Shown here piece after piece: positions 1-5,376 of a DNA stretch of 5,376 nucleotides. The translations under genes and the position numbers were made by a program. Under the pieces are notes generated by a model. That model had not been told where the DNA came from and ran no database searches. It saw only the letters and a program-made list of their open reading frames with translations. This DNA comes from an uncultured Bacteroidales bacterium (lineage in GTDB: Bacteria > Bacteroidota > Bacteroidia > Bacteroidales > UBA932). The stretch is from NCBI GenBank assembly GCA_934702165.1, contig CAKUYG010000145.1, forward strand, positions 1-5,376, given 5' to 3'. Positions within the stretch are counted from its first letter, which is position 1. Each line of letters starts with the position of its first letter.

Positions 1-352
1 CAGTAAGGTCACGACGCTTGACAGAGCCGTATCCGATCACGACCACATCGTCCAGCATAGTGTTGTCCGTTTCGAGTACAACCACCACAGGAGAGGCCCC
101 GGCGGTTATGACCTTTGTAACATATCCTATGGATGAGACAGTAAGCCTGTCACCTTCCATGGCATTGATGGAGAATGAACCGTCAAGTCCGGTGACTACA
201 CCGTTGCCGCTCCTCTCCACGACGACCCCGGCTCCGATGACCGGTTCTCCGGCCACATCAGTGACCTTGCCGCTTATCCGCTGCTGTGCTGACCCGGAAA
301 TCAAGGAACAGAACAGGCAAATGGCGGCCAGGAAAATCCTTTTTGAATCCAT
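1..352 (-). CDS. SusC/RagA-like TonB-dependent outer-membrane receptor, N-terminal part (3' end outside window)
   Basis: Reading the minus strand from the ATG at 352-350 gives 117 uninterrupted codons to the window edge. Residues 1-22 are a Sec signal peptide: basic MDSKR, a hydrophobic core, and a likely cut after SGSA before QQ. Residues 25-95 match the carboxypeptidase-regulatory-like domain at the front of SusC proteins, with ISGKVTD, EPVIGAGV, TGLDGSFSI and LTVSSIGYV in the usual order. Residues 101-109, DDVVVIGYG, followed by KRRDLT (112-117), are the family's conserved stretch at the TonB-box/plug boundary. Known SusC proteins are roughly 1000 residues and import oligosaccharides or other large substrates across the outer membrane with a SusD lipoprotein and TonB energy; plug and barrel are not visible here. 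A SusD gene would be expected beyond the left edge. The gene is divergent from the regulator at 500, which suggests local control. The substrate is unknown. Confidence 0.93.
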   Translation of the reverse strand, partial: MDSKRIFLAAICLFCSLISGSAQQRISGKVTDVAGEPVIGAGVVVERSGNGVVTGLDGSFSINAMEGDRLTVSSIGYVTKVITAGASPVVVVLETDNTMLDDVVVIGYGSVKRRDLT

Positions 353-403
353 TTGTAACATTTGGTTTGTTAAAGTGTTTTAATAATGTGTATTTGTTTG
401 CTG

Positions 404-411
404 CAAAACTA
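404..411 (-). promoter_or_regulatory. Candidate Bacteroidetes -7 element for the SusC-like gene
   Basis: The minus strand reads TAGTTTTG, a full match to the Bacteroidetes primary sigma -7 consensus TAnnTTTG, and continues as GCAGC. Transcription would start near 396-400, leaving an A-rich leader of about 45 nt before the ATG at 352. No good -33 TTTG is seen at the usual 19-21 bp spacing. A small palindrome, TTTGC-T-GCAAA at 397-407, overlaps the predicted start site; it may be chance. The assignment rests on consensus and position only. Confidence 0.5.
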
Positions 412-444
412 AAAACTCAGCATTACAATTATGTCTGATACACT

Positions 445-485
445 CCAAATATTGTTTGAAATCGTCCAAAGACCCAAATTATTGT
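445..485. repeat. Imperfect direct repeat in the divergent spacer, candidate operator
   Basis: CCAAATATTGT at 445-455 recurs as CCAAATTATTGT at 474-485, differing by one inserted T. The copies start 29 bp apart, close to three helical turns, so they would lie on nearly the same DNA face. A shorter related TCCAAAG lies between them at 465-471. The downstream copy ends one base before the regulator's -7 element. AraC-family proteins commonly bind direct repeats near the promoters they control, so these may be half-sites for the adjacent regulator. Function is inference; AT-rich spacers can contain such repeats by chance. Confidence 0.35.
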
Positions 486-486
486 A

Positions 487-494
487 TAATTTTG
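487..494 (+). promoter_or_regulatory. Candidate Bacteroidetes -7 element for the regulator gene
   Basis: TAATTTTG is a full match to TAnnTTTG. Only five bases (CACAT) separate it from the ATG at 500, so transcription would start at or within a few bases of the start codon and the mRNA would be leaderless or almost so. A -33 TTTG is not obvious at normal spacing; a TTGTTTG at 452-458 is about 28 bp upstream, too far for the standard geometry. The position supports choosing the ATG at 500 over the in-frame ATG at 431. Confidence 0.5.
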
Positions 495-499
495 CACAT

Positions 500-3328
500 A
501 TGCACTCGACAAAACCAATCATAACTGCCATTTGTTGCATGGTCATCAGCCTCGTATCATCCACGGCCCAACCGCCACACTATTTCACATGGTACGGCAG
601 CGCCGACAACCAGTCGCTGAAGACCGTACACAAAATCAGTCAAGACAAAGCCGGATATATCTGGATTGCGACATGGGACGGGCTTCTGATGTTCGACGGT
701 TACGAGTTCAAGAAATACTCTCTTCCTTCTGACAGGATGACCAACCGCTTCATTAACGTGACATCGGACTGCAACGGTGACATCTGGGCCCCGGCATATG
801 ACCATCGGCTCTATCGACTTGACAGAAAAAGCGGCACATTCGAGGAGATAGGAGGAGATTCCACTTCTGAAGCCGACTATTACAGATCTCCGGACGGAAG
901 ACGGATTTATCGGCTCGACACATCCGGCAGGCTCACAAGGATAGACATAGCGCCGGACAGATCCTATCACATTTCTGAAGTCTCTCTGCCTGAAAACGCA
1001 AAAGCAAATGGTGTTTTCTTCCACGAAAACGGAAAAGCATGCATACTCAGCGACAAAGGCCCGATTTATGACAAGGCCCCTGTCCTGTCTCACCCGGTGC
1101 GGTGCGCAGTTGAGACAGACGGCGCGACCATATTCGGAGGCACAGGCGGGAAATTGTTCATCCATACTGTATCAGGAACCAGGCAATACAGCATTCCGAC
1201 GGCCGGGAGCATTGCGGCAATATGCCCCGTCCCGGGAAGCAGCGAATTGTTGGCAAGCACATCAGAGTCAGAACTGTTCCTCTACAACCTTGATAACGGA
1301 AAAGCCGCCCGCCTGCATTCCGACTCCTTCCAAGGCAATGGGCAGATAAGTATGCTCAACGATAAGAATGGCGCCATCTGGGTACAGTCGAGCTCGGGCG
1401 GAGTGGACTGGTACGACCCCTCTGGCAGGCGTCTCGTCCCCTTTTACGACGGGAGCAGGCAACAGAAGTGGAACAGCGAGAACCGGGCCACAGCCATTTT
1501 TTCAGATCGTCAGGGAATCCTGTGGATCGGGACCAACTGGAACGGGCTTATGAAAGCAGTATTCAACGATGATCACTTCTATCTGAAATCCCCGTCAATT
1601 CCGGGCAAGAGTGAAATCACGCCAGACAACAGCGTCAGGGCACTCATGGAGGATCAAGACGGAAACATCTGGGCAGGCACAAAAGGCGGGAGGATACACA
1701 TCTATGACTCCCGGATGCTCAAACTTGGAGAACTCCATGCTGACGGGACGATCAGGCAAAAAGCCGGAAAGGATTTCGGAAGCATCTACTCCCTGAGCCA
1801 GAGCGGCGACGGTACGGTGTGGCTGGGTTCGAAAGAAGAAGGCCTTTTCAGCCTGTCTCCATCTGAGGACAGACATCATTACTCGATAAAGCACTATCCT
1901 GTCGATCATGACTCATACTATGGTCTGAACAGCCGTGAGGTTTTTTGCGTACACCCGGATTCATCGGGCAGGGTCTGGCTTGCCACTTTCGATGACGGCC
2001 TCTCTTATCTTGACATCGCGACAGGAGAGTTCATCAGCAAGAAAAACAGACTTCACTTCCCTACTGACCAGCGGAACAGGCTGCGTTTCGTCACGCACTC
2101 AAAAGACGGAAAGCTCTATACCTGCGGGACTCTCGGAGTCTTCATATGCGATGATATCTCCAAAGCGCCTGAAGACATGGTCTTCACCAACCACATCCTG
2201 ACCAGCGATGAGGAAAGCCAGTCCAATGTCAAGGATGTGCAGCACATTACAACAGCAGAAGACGGCTCCGTCTACGCATGCACATACGGTGGGGGATTCT
2301 ACCGGTTTCCGGACAAGGCGATCGGGACAAAGGACGGCATGATGTCAGACTTCACCCTGTCTTCAGTGCAGGACAACTCCGGAAACATCTGGATAGCCAC
2401 GGATGAGGGCCTCAACAGATACAATCCCACAAACGGCAGCATAGAGGGCTTCTCGTACGAAAGGCTCGGATACAAAATAAGATTCAACGAAGGTGCGCCA
2501 TTACGCACATCGCGAGGCGAAATCCTCTTCAACACAAGCGGTGGAATTCTTCACTTCGACCCGGACAACATCTCAAACAGGTCCTACATCCCGGCCATCA
2601 ACATACGCTCAGATGGCAGCACCGGACCTGTCTGCTGTACTGCCGGAAAAGAACTGGACATATCTTTCCAAGCCATGGACATGACAGCCCCGGACAGGAT
2701 CATATACTACTACAGGATCGATGGCGGGGACTGGAAGAACATAGGCAACAGCAGGTCTCTAAGAATGCGCGCCCCCAAAATCGGACGGCACCTTCTTGAG
2801 CTGCGTTCAACAAACGGCAACGGCATAGACGTGGACAACAGCATCCCAATAGAAATATTTGTCAAAGCCCCCTTCTACGCATCCTGGTGGGCCATATCCC
2901 TATATGTCGCCATCATACTGTCAGCAACCTTGCGTCACTTCTTCCTGAAACTGAAAAAAGCGCAGGAAGAAGAGCCCTACTACGGCCGCCTGAAGGGTAC
3001 GGACAGGGACTTTGTAAAAAGAATGGTTACATATATCTCAGACCATATCGATGAATCCGGCCTCGATGTGCAAAAAGTGGCGGAGATCATGAATGTAAGC
3101 CGCTCAAGGCTGTTTGAAAAGACAAAAGCCATACTGGATCTCTCACCGGCCGCAATCATCAGGGAGATCCGTTTCCGGAAAGCCCTCGAACTCATCAGAG
3201 GAGGCGAGCACTCATTGTCCGAAGTAGCCTACATGAGCGGATTCAGCGACACCCACTACTTCAGCACGGCATTCAAGCAGAGATTCGGCATGACACCTGG
3301 AGAATACAAAAAAAGCTGTCACAAATAA
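500..3328 (+). CDS. Membrane-tethered AraC-type regulator with beta-propeller and Y_Y_Y sensor, lacking kinase and receiver domains
   Basis: A 942-residue protein. Residues 1-23 are a signal peptide (K5, hydrophobic 7-19, STAQ cut site). A run of two-component-regulator propeller repeats follows, with IWIAT/GL-type cores centred on W55, W96, W294, W342, W391, W441, W493, Y592 and W631. Residues 718-790 are a Y_Y_Y domain (YYYRIDG at 736-742, W745). One transmembrane helix spans about 796-814. After a linker of about 22 residues comes an AraC/XylS DNA-binding domain (837-942): first HTH from L855 (VAEIMNVSRSRLF), second from L906 (LSEVAYMSGFSDTHYF), ending FGMTPGEY. The periplasmic half has the length usual in Bacteroides hybrid two-component sensors, but the HisKA, HATPase and receiver domains that normally separate membrane and HTH are absent. 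It probably senses a glycan-derived ligand in the periplasm and controls the divergent SusC-like gene. An in-frame ATG at 431 would add 23 residues before the signal peptide, which is implausible. Architecture is clear; ligand and targets are unknown. Confidence 0.92.
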   Translation: MHSTKPIITAICCMVISLVSSTAQPPHYFTWYGSADNQSLKTVHKISQDKAGYIWIATWDGLLMFDGYEFKKYSLPSDRMTNRFINVTSDCNGDIWAPAYDHRLYRLDRKSGTFEEIGGDSTSEADYYRSPDGRRIYRLDTSGRLTRIDIAPDRSYHISEVSLPENAKANGVFFHENGKACILSDKGPIYDKAPVLSHPVRCAVETDGATIFGGTGGKLFIHTVSGTRQYSIPTAGSIAAICPVPGSSELLASTSESELFLYNLDNGKAARLHSDSFQGNGQISMLNDKNGAIWVQSSSGGVDWYDPSGRRLVPFYDGSRQQKWNSENRATAIFSDRQGILWIGTNWNGLMKAVFNDDHFYLKSPSIPGKSEITPDNSVRALMEDQDGNIWAGTKGGRIHIYDSRMLKLGELHADGTIRQKAGKDFGSIYSLSQSGDGTVWLGSKEEGLFSLSPSEDRHHYSIKHYPVDHDSYYGLNSREVFCVHPDSSGRVWLATFDDGLSYLDIATGEFISKKNRLHFPTDQRNRLRFVTHSKDGKLYTCGTLGVFICDDISKAPEDMVFTNHILTSDEESQSNVKDVQHITTAEDGSVYACTYGGGFYRFPDKAIGTKDGMMSDFTLSSVQDNSGNIWIATDEGLNRYNPTNGSIEGFSYERLGYKIRFNEGAPLRTSRGEILFNTSGGILHFDPDNISNRSYIPAINIRSDGSTGPVCCTAGKELDISFQAMDMTAPDRIIYYYRIDGGDWKNIGNSRSLRMRAPKIGRHLLELRSTNGNGIDVDNSIPIEIFVKAPFYASWWAISLYVAIILSATLRHFFLKLKKAQEEEPYYGRLKGTDRDFVKRMVTYISDHIDESGLDVQKVAEIMNVSRSRLFEKTKAILDLSPAAIIREIRFRKALELIRGGEHSLSEVAYMSGFSDTHYFSTAFKQRFGMTPGEYKKSCHK

Positions 3329-3384: not shown

Positions 3385-4593
3385 ATGAAGAAGTGTATGA
3401 CCTTATGGGCTTGCGCAGCAGCGCTTGCCATCCTTGCCGCCGGGTGCGGCAAGGAAAACAAACCGGGCGAGGAGGAAGTCACCGTTCCGAGCGATGCCTT
3501 CAACCTCAACGCAGCAGGAGAAACAGCCAACAGTTACATCGTCGCCCCTGGCAAGACGTCAGTCTTCACAGTCCAGTACAAAGGCAACTCGAAAACCGAA
3601 GAGACAGGAGCCGTCGTGTCCGCCGAGCTCCTTTGGCAGGACGCTGAGTCTCTCATCAAAGAACTCTACTATGTTCCCGAGACCATGCAGGTTGTAGTCA
3701 AGACCGGCAAGGTTTGCGGTAACGCCGTCGTGGCAGTAAGGGACGAGGGGGACAACATCCTCTGGAGCTGGCACCTGTGGGTAAGCGACTACGACCCGGC
3801 AGCAAGCCTCTGGAGCAGCCCTGCCACAGCGAACGGGACAGTATGGAAATTCATGGACCGCAATCTCGGTGCCAGCAGTGCCGAGCCTGGAGACTGGAAC
3901 AGCAAGGGCCTCCTCTACCAATGGGGCCGCAAGGACCCGTTCAAGAGCCCGGCGGCATTTACTGTACAGAACGAAGACTACTCATACGCTGTCAACGGCG
4001 AGCCTACCCTCTACACTATAGACAACAAGGCCATTGCCACCACACCATACGAAGACGCAGAGGGCTTCGGCTCATACGAGAAGAGCTTACAGAATCCGAC
4101 AGTGTTTTACAAAGTCATGGAGGAGTACCTCGAGGACGGGGATAAAGCCAACCACCCTGCATCCAAAGACTGGAGAGACAGTTCCGACGACGATGCCTGG
4201 GGCGGCGTGAGCCTCACCAAGTCAATCAACGACCCTTGCCCTCCGGGATACAAGGTTCCAGTCCTTGCAGCCAACGGAGACCACCCGTACTCATGGCATG
4301 ACTTCAACAAGGCAGAATGGGACACGGTCAACTACGGCATGAACCAGGACGGACAGTGGTGGCCGGCAGCCGGCACACGCGTCAACTACAGCGGCGGCCT
4401 CGACTTCCCGGAAATCAACCCTTACGGAGGCATGTGGGTCGGTACGGCCGGCAAGGCCAGCGAGGATCTTGAGAAATACCCAACCCTTTACGGAAGGTAC
4501 ACATTCATCATAAAGACCAAGCGCATGTACAACAAGTACGATCAGAAAGACGCACGCTCACAGGCCCTTTCTGTACGCTGCGTAGCCGAATAA
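3385..4593 (+). CDS. Putative lipoprotein with FISUMP-like (major paralogous) C-terminal domain
   Basis: A 402-residue protein beginning MKKCM, with a hydrophobic stretch and a lipobox AAGC (18-21), so C21 is the predicted lipidated residue. The next residues, GKENKPGEEE, are charged, as in Bacteroidetes lipoproteins exported to the cell surface, though they are not a textbook export signal. Residues about 34-135 look like a beta-rich Ig-like module ending ILWSWHLWVSDYDP. Residues about 150-402 carry hallmarks of the Fibrobacter major paralogous (FISUMP) domain found in many Bacteroidales surface proteins: MDRNLGA (157-163), YQWGRKDPF (178-186), DPCPPGYKVP (283-292) and a closing SVRCV (396-400). 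C285 and C399 may pair. No catalytic motif is visible. It starts 56 bp after the regulator with no terminator between them, so read-through is possible; a weak TACCTTG at 3351-3357 could be a separate promoter. A strong terminator follows. Adhesive or structural surface roles are typical of relatives; the function here is unknown. Confidence 0.85.
   Translation: MKKCMTLWACAAALAILAAGCGKENKPGEEEVTVPSDAFNLNAAGETANSYIVAPGKTSVFTVQYKGNSKTEETGAVVSAELLWQDAESLIKELYYVPETMQVVVKTGKVCGNAVVAVRDEGDNILWSWHLWVSDYDPAASLWSSPATANGTVWKFMDRNLGASSAEPGDWNSKGLLYQWGRKDPFKSPAAFTVQNEDYSYAVNGEPTLYTIDNKAIATTPYEDAEGFGSYEKSLQNPTVFYKVMEEYLEDGDKANHPASKDWRDSSDDDAWGGVSLTKSINDPCPPGYKVPVLAANGDHPYSWHDFNKAEWDTVNYGMNQDGQWWPAAGTRVNYSGGLDFPEINPYGGMWVGTAGKASEDLEKYPTLYGRYTFIIKTKRMYNKYDQKDARSQALSVRCVAE
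3431..3455 (+). other. Perfect intragenic hairpin over the lipobox codons
   Basis: TCCTTGCCGC (3431-3440) pairs perfectly with GCGGCAAGGA (3446-3455) around the loop CGGGT: a 10-bp stem, seven pairs of it G-C. It covers codons 16-24, which encode the end of the signal peptide and the lipid-accepting Cys. No T-tract follows on either strand, so it is not an intrinsic terminator. It may arise simply from the Leu-Ala-Ala-Gly-Cys-Gly-Lys codons, or it may slow ribosomes early in the mRNA. Confidence 0.5.
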
Positions 4594-4611: not shown

Positions 4612-4647
4612 AAAGCCGTTCTCCAGACCTGGGAACGGCTTTTTTTA
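4612..4647 (+). terminator. Rho-independent terminator after the lipoprotein gene
   Basis: The left arm AGCCGTTC (4614-4621) pairs with GAACGGCT (4633-4640). Above it, CCA (4623-4625) pairs with TGG (4630-4632), leaving T4622 bulged and a GACC loop. Eleven pairs in total, followed by a run of seven T including the last stem base (4640-4646). It lies 20 bp after the stop codon at 4591-4593 and ends about 15 bp before the next start, insulating the pseudouridine synthase gene. Confidence 0.9.
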
Positions 4648-4661: not shown

Positions 4662-5376
4662 ATGGTTTACAGACAGCTGACAAAAGAAGAATTCGAAGAC
4701 TTCGCGGGCAGGATCCTTTATGAGGACAACCACCTGCTGGTAGTGGACAAGAAAGTAGGGGAAATAACCCAGGGCGACAAGACCGGCGACGAGTGCCTCG
4801 CCGAATCATACAAGGCATTCATCGCGCAACGCGACGGCAAGCCAGGGCAGGTCTTTCTCGGGGTGCCGCACAGGCTGGACCGCCCCGTATGCGGCATCTG
4901 CATACTCGCAAAAACCTCAAAAGCCCTCGAAAGGCTGACCGCGATGTTTCGGGACGGAGAAATCCACAAGAAATACTGGGCGCTCTGCTGTTCTAAACCG
5001 GATCCAGAAGAAGGACATCTGGAAGACTGGCTCGTCCGCAACGAAAAGCAGAACAAGACCTACACGGCCGGAGCGGGCAGCCATGAAAAGCCGCGTCCGG
5101 ATGCGAAGTTGGCCAAACTCAACTACAAGTATCTTCTTAGCACGGACAGATATCATCTCATAGAAGTCGAACTGCTCACCGGCAGGCATCACCAGATCCG
5201 CTGCCAGTTGAGCAACGCCGGTTGCACGATAAAGGGTGACCTGAAATACGGAGCCCCGCGTTCCAACCCGGATGGGGGAATCTGCCTCCAGGCACACGAG
5301 ATCAGTTTCATACATCCAGTCAAGAAAACCCCAAATGACATAACAGTGCAGGCCCCTGTCAACTGGAAAGGAGTCA
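4662..5376 (+). CDS. RluA-family RNA pseudouridine synthase (3' end outside window)
   Basis: The frame is open for 238 codons from the ATG at 4662 to the window edge. It should convert specific uridines in rRNA or tRNA to pseudouridine in the cytoplasm; the target site cannot be told from sequence. Family motifs appear in order: ILYEDNHLLVVDK (18-30); HRLDRPVCG (70-78), with D73 the expected catalytic aspartate; a GEIHKKYWAL segment (99-108), with Y105 the conserved active-site tyrosine; and LLTGRHHQIRCQL (171-183). GDLKYG (192-197) and HPV (218-220) are typical of the C-terminal part. No N-terminal S4 domain is present: the catalytic domain starts about 17 residues in, as in the short Bacteroidetes members, so the protein probably ends just beyond the window. 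The usual NKPxG is DKKVG here (29-33), a minor deviation away from the active site. It is separated from the upstream genes by a terminator and is unlikely to share their role. Confidence 0.93.
   Translation, partial: MVYRQLTKEEFEDFAGRILYEDNHLLVVDKKVGEITQGDKTGDECLAESYKAFIAQRDGKPGQVFLGVPHRLDRPVCGICILAKTSKALERLTAMFRDGEIHKKYWALCCSKPDPEEGHLEDWLVRNEKQNKTYTAGAGSHEKPRPDAKLAKLNYKYLLSTDRYHLIEVELLTGRHHQIRCQLSNAGCTIKGDLKYGAPRSNPDGGICLQAHEISFIHPVKKTPNDITVQAPVNWKGV

What the first reader, a model, noticed from the sequence alone, without database searches (positions are those of the whole stretch)
500..3328. A hybrid two-component-type sensor joined directly to an AraC domain, with the phosphorelay missing
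Seen: signal peptide, propeller repeats, Y_Y_Y domain, one transmembrane helix, about 22 residues of linker, then an AraC HTH. Known: in Bacteroides hybrid two-component systems, HisKA, HATPase and receiver domains lie between the membrane and this same kind of HTH. The sensor half is full length (about 770 periplasmic residues) and the HTH start (TDRDFVKRMVTYI) resembles the segment that follows the receiver in those hybrids. Inference: an internal loss of the phosphorelay produced a membrane-tethered one-component activator that must bind DNA from the inner membrane, as ToxR or CadC do. Kinase-less propeller/HTH proteins may already be known in databases, so novelty is not certain.
Basis: partly seen in the sequence, partly recalled or inferred. 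Interest (0 to 1): 0.7.

Follow-up and report, generated by a model that had tools for sequence, protein, structure and literature searches.

The report
Membrane sugar sensor without its kinase
This gene encodes a protein, predicted to sit in the inner membrane, in which a sugar-sensor-type outer half is joined directly to a DNA-binding inner half without the phosphate-relay domains that lie between them in related bacterial sensors; it likely descends from such a sensor by losing the relay, and would control its own gene and the nutrient-uptake gene beside it.

Summary
Confirmed. Window 500-3328 (+) is one intact gene (942 aa): signal peptide, Reg_prop propellers, Y_Y_Y domain, one predicted TM helix, about 19 residues, AraC HTH; no HisKA, HATPase or receiver. 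It is no assembly deletion: the 24 nearest homologues (35-69% identity) share the architecture. Sensor and HTH trees place the clade with the same hybrid two-component systems (HTCS), so internal loss of the phosphorelay is the best reading; one clade of kinase-less forms is rejected (p-AU 3e-6). New here: (1) the recognition-helix lysine reported to contact the inhibitory receiver (Gao 2024) loses most conservation of all HTH columns once the receiver is gone (K in 72/74 hybrids, 30/66 kinase-less); its partner Asp is kept, as is the window's own Lys. (2) A tandem site, TGTYTGA-N6-CCAAA twice, 21 bp apart (the reported HTCS spacing), lies between outward promoter elements of a divergent susC and this gene, recurs at the same place in one relative and in none of 399 other genomes; weaker 21-bp repeats precede the gene in other relatives. 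Many relatives lie beside pectin-type enzymes. Membrane-tethered activation is inferred, untested. Membrane one-component regulators are known; this is a new variant.

The parts
2..361 (-). N-terminal part of a divergent SusC/RagA-family TonB-dependent transporter gene (runs off the window)
   Evidence: TIGR04056 E 3e-28 (98.6 bits for this fragment, below the whole-protein cut-off), CarbopepD_reg_2 E 2e-14
403..411 (-). candidate Bacteroidota -7 promoter element TAGTTTTGC of susC
   Evidence: one of only two TANNTTTGY matches in the window, both in this intergenic region; the promoter motif itself is recalled
432..449 (+). candidate operator half-site 1, TGTCTGATACACTCCAAA
   Evidence: 0 mismatches to TGTYTGA-N6-CCAAA, also found in relative L105
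453..470 (+). candidate operator half-site 2, TGTTTGAAATCGTCCAAA, 21 bp from half-site 1
   Evidence: 0 mismatches; the tandem was found in 1 of 400 genomes, at the same place in G442
487..495 (+). candidate -7 promoter element TAATTTTGC of the regulator gene
   Evidence: a TAnnTTTG match lies near the start in 21 of 22 regulator loci scanned, the window included
500..3328 (+). kinase-less HTCS-derived regulator gene, 942 codons plus stop
500..571 (+). predicted signal peptide, about residues 1-24
   Evidence: hydropathy 6-24, helix 5-18 in the model, conserved AQ after it
572..2599 (+). periplasmic Reg_prop beta-propeller region, about residues 25-700
   Evidence: Reg_prop; match to HTCS sensors in PDB
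2630..2866 (+). Y_Y_Y domain, about residues 711-789
   Evidence: sub-threshold Pfam match, strands in the model, 51 of 52 relatives match
2891..2947 (+). predicted transmembrane helix core, residues 798-816
2948..3001 (+). short linker, residues 817-834, where HTCS carry HisKA, HATPase and receiver
3002..3325 (+). AraC-type (HTH_18) DNA-binding domain, residues 835-942
3119..3121 (+). codon of Lys874, HTH position 40, matched by spacing to the reported receiver-contact lysine K1383 of BT4124

Best explanation
The gene encodes a one-component regulator, predicted to be anchored in the inner membrane, in which an HTCS-type periplasmic sensor is joined by one predicted helix directly to an AraC DNA-binding domain, and which likely arose by internal loss of the kinase and receiver from a hybrid two-component system. 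Shown: the architecture, its conservation in a clade, the placement of both halves with the same hybrids, the tandem 21-bp site between susC and the regulator gene, and loss of conservation at the reported receiver-contact lysine across kinase-less proteins. Inferred: the protein is a dimer through its periplasmic half; an oligosaccharide, by neighbourhood of relatives perhaps pectin-derived, changes the dimer; this turns or spaces the two HTH domains so that they sit on the two half-sites, two helical turns apart, while the protein stays in the membrane; from there it would activate susC and regulate its own gene. With the receiver gone, the receiver-held OFF state of HTCS would be replaced by control through dimer geometry.
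For: Architecture and model. Clade: 24 of 24 nearest homologues have no HisKA, HATPase or receiver in their precomputed Pfam lists; of 52 locus proteins classed as kinase-less by my own profiles, Pfam finds these three families in 0, Reg_prop and HTH_18 in 52 and Y_Y_Y in 51; one copy in each of 16 genomes, no stops. Origin: the window clade (23 rows) has SH-aLRT 100 in the sensor tree and 98 in the HTH tree; the 20 hybrids that share its starred 44-row HTH clade are all among the 24 hybrids of its 47-row sensor grouping. One clade of kinase-less forms is rejected on 50 rows. Released contact: HTH column 40 has the largest drop in conservation of the HTH columns compared, and 0 changes among 34 hybrids against 13 among 44 kinase-less rows on the sensor tree, the most skewed of 104 columns. 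Operator. Published HTCS operators: direct repeats, on average 21 bp apart (PMC3878776, passages). Neighbours: GH95, pectinesterase or pectate lyase at 20 of 22 relatives' loci (the latter two at 12 of 22); divergent susC at two as in the window.
Against: No experiment on this protein or a relative is known to me. The window protein itself keeps Lys at position 40, as do 13 of 23 rows of its clade; the partner Asp is not released (67/74 hybrids, 57/66 kinase-less); and the column's p of 1e-3 would not survive correction over all 104 columns, it counts only because the residue was named beforehand. The exact operator motif was read off the window and L105; it is absent from L106, the other relative with divergent susC, and from the GH95/pectinesterase-type relatives, where only a 21-bp repeat shows; in those 15 loci lag 31 is marginally higher than lag 21 in the whole-region profile (0.511 against 0.500). 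Two TANNTTTGY matches in a window of this size are not rare (39 of 200 shuffles have at least two); their place is the point. The sensor-tree groupings with hybrids are not starred (85 and 87), and the HTH tree forces only two changes and has many open forks. In 2 of the 23 clade rows (P0025, L002) no TM before the HTH passed my hydropathy threshold. In the window no sugar enzyme is visible, only susC.
Confidence: 0.74

Rival explanations
1. Regulated proteolysis: ligand binding triggers cleavage in or near the TM helix, and the freed HTH domain acts in the cytoplasm.
For: A membrane-tethered transcription factor can work either way; nothing or 62 excludes cleavage.
Against: The 21-bp tandem site suits a held dimer; a freed AraC domain would likely be a monomer. 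No cleavage motif was looked for.
Confidence: 0.13
2. Domain shuffling: an HTCS-type sensor was fused to an unrelated stand-alone AraC domain, without loss from one ancestral hybrid.
For: 28 of 74 inner branches of the HTH tree are open, and no stand-alone AraC regulators were put in the trees.
Against: The HTH falls in a starred 44-row clade with 20 hybrids, all 20 of which are among the 24 hybrids grouped with its sensor. The Prevotella group of about 1000 aa even keeps a post-receiver-like linker resembling hybrids L059/L066 (read by eye).
Confidence: 0.08
3. Kinase-less forms are ancestral and the phosphorelay was inserted later in the hybrids.
For: The trees are unrooted and cannot tell gain from loss.
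Against: Kinase-less groups lie apart among hybrids (three changes forced), so parallel insertions of a relay of about 430 residues at one place would be needed. The position-40 lysine is nearly invariant in hybrids and patchy in kinase-less forms.
Confidence: 0.04
4. Dead or merely constitutive DNA binder: the sensor no longer controls the HTH, or the gene is decaying.
For: Relief of the receiver's inhibition gives DNA binding without phosphorylation in HTCS fragments (PMC11253607, passages).
Against: Whole-length conservation of sensor and HTH across 35-69% identity, no stops in 16 genomes, and repeats kept in the promoter.
Confidence: 0.07
5. Assembly or strain-specific deletion of a normal HTCS.
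For: None found.
Against: 24 full-length homologues with the same architecture and 16 genomes with one uninterrupted copy.
Confidence: 0.01

Closest known systems
Bacteroides hybrid two-component systems (HTCS; BT4663, BT3049, BT4673, BT4124)
   Same: Reg_prop/Y_Y_Y periplasmic sensor, TM before the cytoplasmic part, C-terminal AraC HTH, susC next door, direct-repeat site with 21-bp spacing
   Different: No HisKA, HATPase or receiver; 19-residue linker instead of about 440; loosened receiver-contact lysine across the kinase-less set
SusR-like regulators of Bacteroides (SusR BT3705, SusR2 BT3091)
   Same: Membrane one-component regulators of glycan use with a periplasmic sensor and cytoplasmic DNA-binding end (PMC3878776, passages)
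   Different: SusR's DNA-binding end has no significant similarity to those of other known regulators, and predicted SusR sites are 67 or 77 bp apart (PMC3878776); here AraC HTH and 21 bp
Transmembrane transcription regulators (TTRs) as a class
   Same: DNA-binding domain plus TM region in one chain; Y_Y_Y reported in 7.7% and two-component core domains in about 8.2% of TTRs (PMC10269533, passages)
   Different: The passages that I read do not single out HTCS-derived kinase-less AraC proteins, repeated origins or operators (the words AraC, HTH_18 and propeller do not occur in its main text)
ToxR / CadC
   Same: Work-alike: one-component activators binding DNA from the inner membrane (recalled)
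   Different: Cytoplasmic N-terminal winged-helix domain and opposite topology (recalled); no homology claimed
Rsp of Neisseria gonorrhoeae (PilS receptor joined to PilR DNA-binding domain, as told in PMC10269533)
   Same: A natural two-component-derived chimera of sensor and DNA-binding domain
   Different: Different families; a chimera of separate proteins, not loss within a hybrid

Membership tests
Hybrid two-component system (HTCS) | Periplasmic sensor of Reg_prop repeats plus Y_Y_Y | tested here: met
   Reg_prop above cut-off, Y_Y_Y sub-threshold; Foldseek's first 15 rows are HTCS sensors
Hybrid two-component system (HTCS) | HisKA and HATPase domains | tested here: not met
   None in Pfam up to E 0.1; none in 52 relatives at E 0.001
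Hybrid two-component system (HTCS) | Receiver domain | tested here: not met
   linker of 19 residues
Hybrid two-component system (HTCS) | C-terminal AraC-type HTH | tested here: met
   HTH_18 69.9 bits against a cut-off of 33.6
Hybrid two-component system (HTCS) | Direct-repeat operator with sites about 21 bp apart | tested here: inconclusive
   A 21-bp tandem sequence is present in window and L105; that the protein binds it was not tested
SusR-like regulator | DNA-binding end unlike other known regulator families | tested here: not met
   AraC HTH_18 match
SusR-like regulator | Tandem sites 67 or 77 bp apart | tested here: not met
   candidate site has 21 bp; other spacings of 67 or 77 were not scanned for
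Transmembrane transcription regulator (TTR) | DNA-binding domain and at least one TM region in one chain | tested here: met
   Prediction only
Transmembrane transcription regulator (TTR) | Acts on DNA while in the membrane | not testable with these tools
   needs experiment
ToxR/CadC | N-terminal cytoplasmic winged-helix DNA-binding domain | tested here: not met
   C-terminal AraC HTH; the family's feature is recalled

The most novel reading that the evidence does not exclude
Bacteroidota have repeatedly turned hybrid two-component systems into kinase-free membrane switches: the phosphorelay was cut out, the periplasmic sensor was left to gate the AraC domain by geometry alone, the lysine that the receiver used to hold DNA binding off drifted free, and the 21-bp tandem operator was kept. 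This would be a natural, replicated proof that the relay is a dispensable insert between a sensor and a DNA-binding domain.
Probability: 0.55. Interest if true: 0.78.

Novelty: new variant of a known kind. Interest (0 to 1): 0.6.

Why it matters
HTCS are a major class of glycan-use regulators in Bacteroides, and it is argued that tethering the DNA-binding domain to a kinase dimer calls for a receiver-based brake on DNA binding (PMC11253607, abstract). A clade, and likely several, that dropped kinase, receiver and brake yet kept the sensor, the HTH and an HTCS-like tandem site makes a question directly testable: what does the phosphorelay add, and can a propeller sensor switch DNA binding through one membrane helix? 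It is also an annotation caution: kinase-less forms were frequent among the Prevotella-titled loci fetched here (a set biased towards them), while a Segatella copri study calls its PUL regulators HTCS (PMC11784079, passages); whether any of those is kinase-less I did not check.

Tried and rejected
Own-genome searches: no genome is held for the window. Viral contigs: no relative. General repeat scan: a 14-nt direct repeat at 442/472 was not significant (96 of 500 shuffles as good) and was dropped; the 21-bp tandem was seen only when L105's promoter was read beside the window's. The sigma-70-type scan was not used: 8 sites against 3.6 in shuffles, a promoter type not expected here. Aligning regions upstream of GH95 genes gave no usable footprint (the regulator-upstream alignment in the same call did). 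A first kinase profile overlapped the sensor and gave false matches; it was rebuilt. Longest-ORF gene calls in relatives included antisense ORFs; neighbours were recounted by tblastn. A review (PMC10766802, passages) held nothing on kinase-less HTCS. Considered and rejected: assembly artefact, pseudogene, membership of SusR or ToxR families.

Bias and dropped rows. The 80 loci (of 406 relatives found) were picked by patterns from kinase-less proteins, so kinase-less to hybrid numbers (52 to 15, with 1 lacking a detected HTH and 12 lacking kinase, receiver and HTH) are not frequencies. For the trees I chose 78 rows by hand from the 120 listed proteins and the loci; for the AU test 28 of these 78 (long branches, near-duplicates) were dropped. 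For one search, 179 proteins with an HTH were used (26 without HTH left out; L102 left out by my strand rule; partial L099 and L100 not taken) and rows at 90% identity or more within a class removed, leaving 140. In one search, 20 of the 22 loci were used (L108 had no element; L109 was left out).
Full report
OBSERVATION. The window holds one long gene at 500-3328 (+) (the ORF opens at 431, but the start matching homologous signal peptides is 500). Pfam finds Reg_prop, HTH_18 and HTH_AraC, with no HisKA, HATPase_c or Response_reg up to E 0.1; Y_Y_Y is sub-threshold. Closest solved sequences are HTCS sensors (3v9f, 4a2l) for the N-terminal part and, for residues 823-938, a chain named hybrid two-component system protein (12aw). 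Hydropathy gives a leader at 6-24 and one TM at 798-816; the HTH starts at 835, a 19-residue linker; in 34 hybrids TM and HTH are 416-465 residues apart, with one exception of 270. The AlphaFold2 model is confident (pLDDT 88.4, pTM 0.76): a long run of strands, then a strand-rich stretch at 711-789, one helix 796-823, HTH 834-941. Foldseek's first 15 PDB rows are the periplasmic domains of BT4663, BT3049 and BT4673.

NOT AN ARTEFACT. In the protein search (725 matches at E<=0.001, 120 listed) the first 24 after the query have 35-69% identity, 930-960 aa, 98-100% coverage and no HisKA, HATPase or receiver in their Pfam lists; proteins with kinase, receiver and HTH start at 32% identity and are 1287-1521 aa long. 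Four more distant kinase-less HTH proteins are listed (P0073, P0084, P0092, P0108). Of 80 loci fetched from genome contigs, the best ORF had an HTH without kinase or receiver in 52, all three in 15, kinase and receiver without a detected HTH in 1 and none of them in 12; the loci were selected by patterns from kinase-less proteins, so these are not frequencies. Pfam on the 52: Reg_prop 52, HTH_18 52, Y_Y_Y 51; HisKA, HATPase_c and Response_reg are not among the 15 families matched. Sixteen relatives' genomes have one copy each at E<=1e-30 without internal stops. The family is narrow: 13 of 200 genomes of one genus at 1e-100, 12 of 398 of its family at 1e-100, 1 of 393 of its order at 1e-120, the centre genome G001 counted each time.

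ORIGIN. Separate trees were built from 78 rows (44 kinase-less, 34 hybrid). In the sensor tree the window's clade (23 rows) has SH-aLRT 100; it is grouped with four hybrids (85) and, more widely, with 24 hybrids (87), neither starred; kinase-less and hybrid labels need three changes, all three forced by starred branches. In the HTH tree (113 columns; 28 of 74 inner branches open) the same 23 rows form a clade (98) inside a starred 44-row clade that holds 20 hybrids, all of them among the 24 of the sensor grouping; five changes, two forced. On a 50-row subset the AU test rejects one clade of kinase-less proteins (lnL difference 115, p-AU 3.2e-6). Both halves thus point to the same HTCS, and internal loss of about 430 residues is the simplest account, likely more than once. 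The trees are unrooted, so loss rather than gain is inferred, and three changes could be mixed gains and losses. By eye, the Prevotella group of about 1000 aa keeps a linker like the post-receiver linker of hybrids L059/L066; in the window's clade I saw no receiver remnant.

RELEASED RECEIVER CONTACT. Gao, Wu and Stock (PMC11253607; outline, abstract and passages read) report that HTCS receivers hold the HTH off DNA through a motif S/CHIP-DK, with D1344 and K1383 of BT4124 in HTH helices alpha-6 and alpha-8. The 39-residue spacing fits D1 and K40 of the HTH as numbered here; this mapping is mine, by spacing and helix, not from BT4124's own sequence. Among 140 HTH rows (74 hybrid, 66 kinase-less) column 40 shows the largest conservation loss of the columns compared: K in 72 of 74 hybrids, 30 of 66 kinase-less (R 25). 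On the sensor tree it changes 0 times among 34 hybrids and 13 times among 44 kinase-less rows, against 900 and 1285 summed over 104 columns (binomial p 1.0e-3 for this column; rank 1 of 104; not significant if all 104 columns are corrected for), and it varies in each of three kinase-less groups (K 13 of 23, 8 of 14, 3 of 7). Against: D1 is kept (67 of 74, 57 of 66), and the window protein keeps K40. Of 78 hybrids from the protein list 74 carry S/CHIP, so the ancestor likely had this brake.

OPERATOR AND PROMOTERS. The 138-bp gap between susC and the regulator contains the only two TANNTTTGY matches of the window, facing outward: 411-403 for susC and 487-495 for the regulator (0.86 expected in the whole window; 39 of 200 shuffles have two or more, so the number is ordinary and the placement is the point). 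This is the Bacteroidota -7 consensus (recalled). Between them lie TGTCTGATACACTCCAAA (432-449) and TGTTTGAAATCGTCCAAA (453-470), starts 21 bp apart. Relative L105 (sensor 34%, HTH 35% identical, measured on L098, the same gene) has the same divergent susC and the same tandem, 0 mismatches, 21 bp apart. Distances, reckoned from these coordinates, are 20 nt to the susC element in both and 16 (window) or 15 nt (L105) to the regulator's element. The motif written from both loci was found, at up to 2 mismatches over 24 fixed positions, in 1 of 400 genomes: G442 itself, the source of L105. A motif taken from L105 alone (26 fixed positions) matches the window at 432 with 3 mismatches; 200 shuffles of the window reach 7 at best, and 108 other loci (1.72 Mb, some overlapping) reach 7 at best apart from L110, which is the G442 site again. 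Within each gap alone the 18-nt repeat at lag 21 (13 of 18) is reached by 3 of 500 (window) and 4 of 500 (L105) shuffles. Upstream of the regulator in 15 GH95/pectinesterase-type loci a TAnnTTTG element is present in all 15, and at a fixed 15 nt above it 18-mers repeat best at lag 21 (0.533 against 0.159-0.352 at other lags 14-27); these loci are related to each other, and in the whole-region profile lag 31 (0.511) slightly exceeds lag 21 (0.500). In L106, L107 and L014 taken together lag 21 is the highest (0.470, mean 0.309), but L106 alone has 7 of 18, and none of the three has the motif. Ravcheev et al. (PMC3878776, passages) report direct-repeat HTCS sites 21 bp apart on average and SusR sites 67 or 77 bp apart; the geometry here is HTCS-like.

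NEIGHBOURS. Within the flanks held (unequal), tblastn finds a GH95 (15, seven of them with a pectinesterase too), pectinesterase-only (3) or pectate-lyase-only (2) neighbour at 20 of 22 relatives' loci, none at L102 and L103; pectinesterase or pectate lyase, the plainly pectin-directed enzymes, at 12 of 22. The window's SusC N-terminus matches at L098 and L104, divergent as here. Pfam confirms GH95 and pectinesterase and pectate lyases, SusC, SusD, GH115 and pectinesterase in chosen genes. A pectic ligand is a fair guess for the clade; for the window itself only the divergent susC is seen.

MECHANISM. Inferred: a periplasmic dimer senses an oligosaccharide imported by its SusC system and passes a change through one helix to two AraC domains, which bind the 21-bp tandem from the membrane, activate susC and control the regulator's own gene. 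Proteolytic release is the main rival and was not tested. The rivals overlap, so their odds need not add to one with the main reading.

KNOWN OR NEW. One-chain membrane regulators are a recognised class, enriched in Bacteroidia, with Y_Y_Y in 7.7% of them, and descent from two-component systems is raised there (PMC10269533, passages). SusR is a membrane one-component regulator (PMC3878776, passages). Martens et al. describe HTCS sensors and say that most HTCS, not all, have all relay domains (PMC3243724, passages). Searches for a description of kinase-less HTCS-type AraC regulators listed none that I recognised as one; two searches showed only 20 of 24 and 15 of 151 papers, the library lacks most subscription papers, and I read passages only. 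Hence: new variant of a known kind.

Noticed in passing
window 3385-4593 (+): Predicted lipoprotein gene (402 aa) 56 bp after the regulator on the same strand, with no Pfam or NCBIfam match up to E 0.1; a 12-pair hairpin with a T run at 4612-4642 follows it (such sites are no more numerous in the window than in shuffles), so the two genes may share a transcript.
   Followed up: partly
window 4662-5375 (+): RluA-family pseudouridine synthase gene (PseudoU_synth_2 E 3e-28), running off the window.
   Followed up: no
L048, L052, L064, L068, L071, L072, L073, L077, L078, L080: Prevotella- or Prevotellaceae-titled sensor proteins of 868-931 aa whose ORF ends soon after the TM helix with no HTH, kinase or receiver found; their Y_Y_Y-region sequences look like those of the kinase-less Prevotella group of about 1000 aa, whose HTH scores are low in some members (L030, L034). 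Perhaps a further step: loss of the output domain too.
   Followed up: no
L037, L046, L049, L074: Prevotella-type kinase-less regulators of about 800 aa with a longer linker (52-54 residues) that looks coiled-coil-like by eye, unlike the 16-30 residue linkers measured in the window's clade.
   Followed up: no
L007 13543-17025 (-): Natural fusion of a GH95 enzyme and a pectinesterase in one 1160-aa chain, near the regulator; in L001 the GH95 gene has no pectinesterase part.
   Followed up: partly
L109 6849-9734 (-) and L106 8916-11777 (+): Genome G851 carries two different members of this regulator family on separate contigs, unlike the single copies in G001-G016.
   Followed up: no
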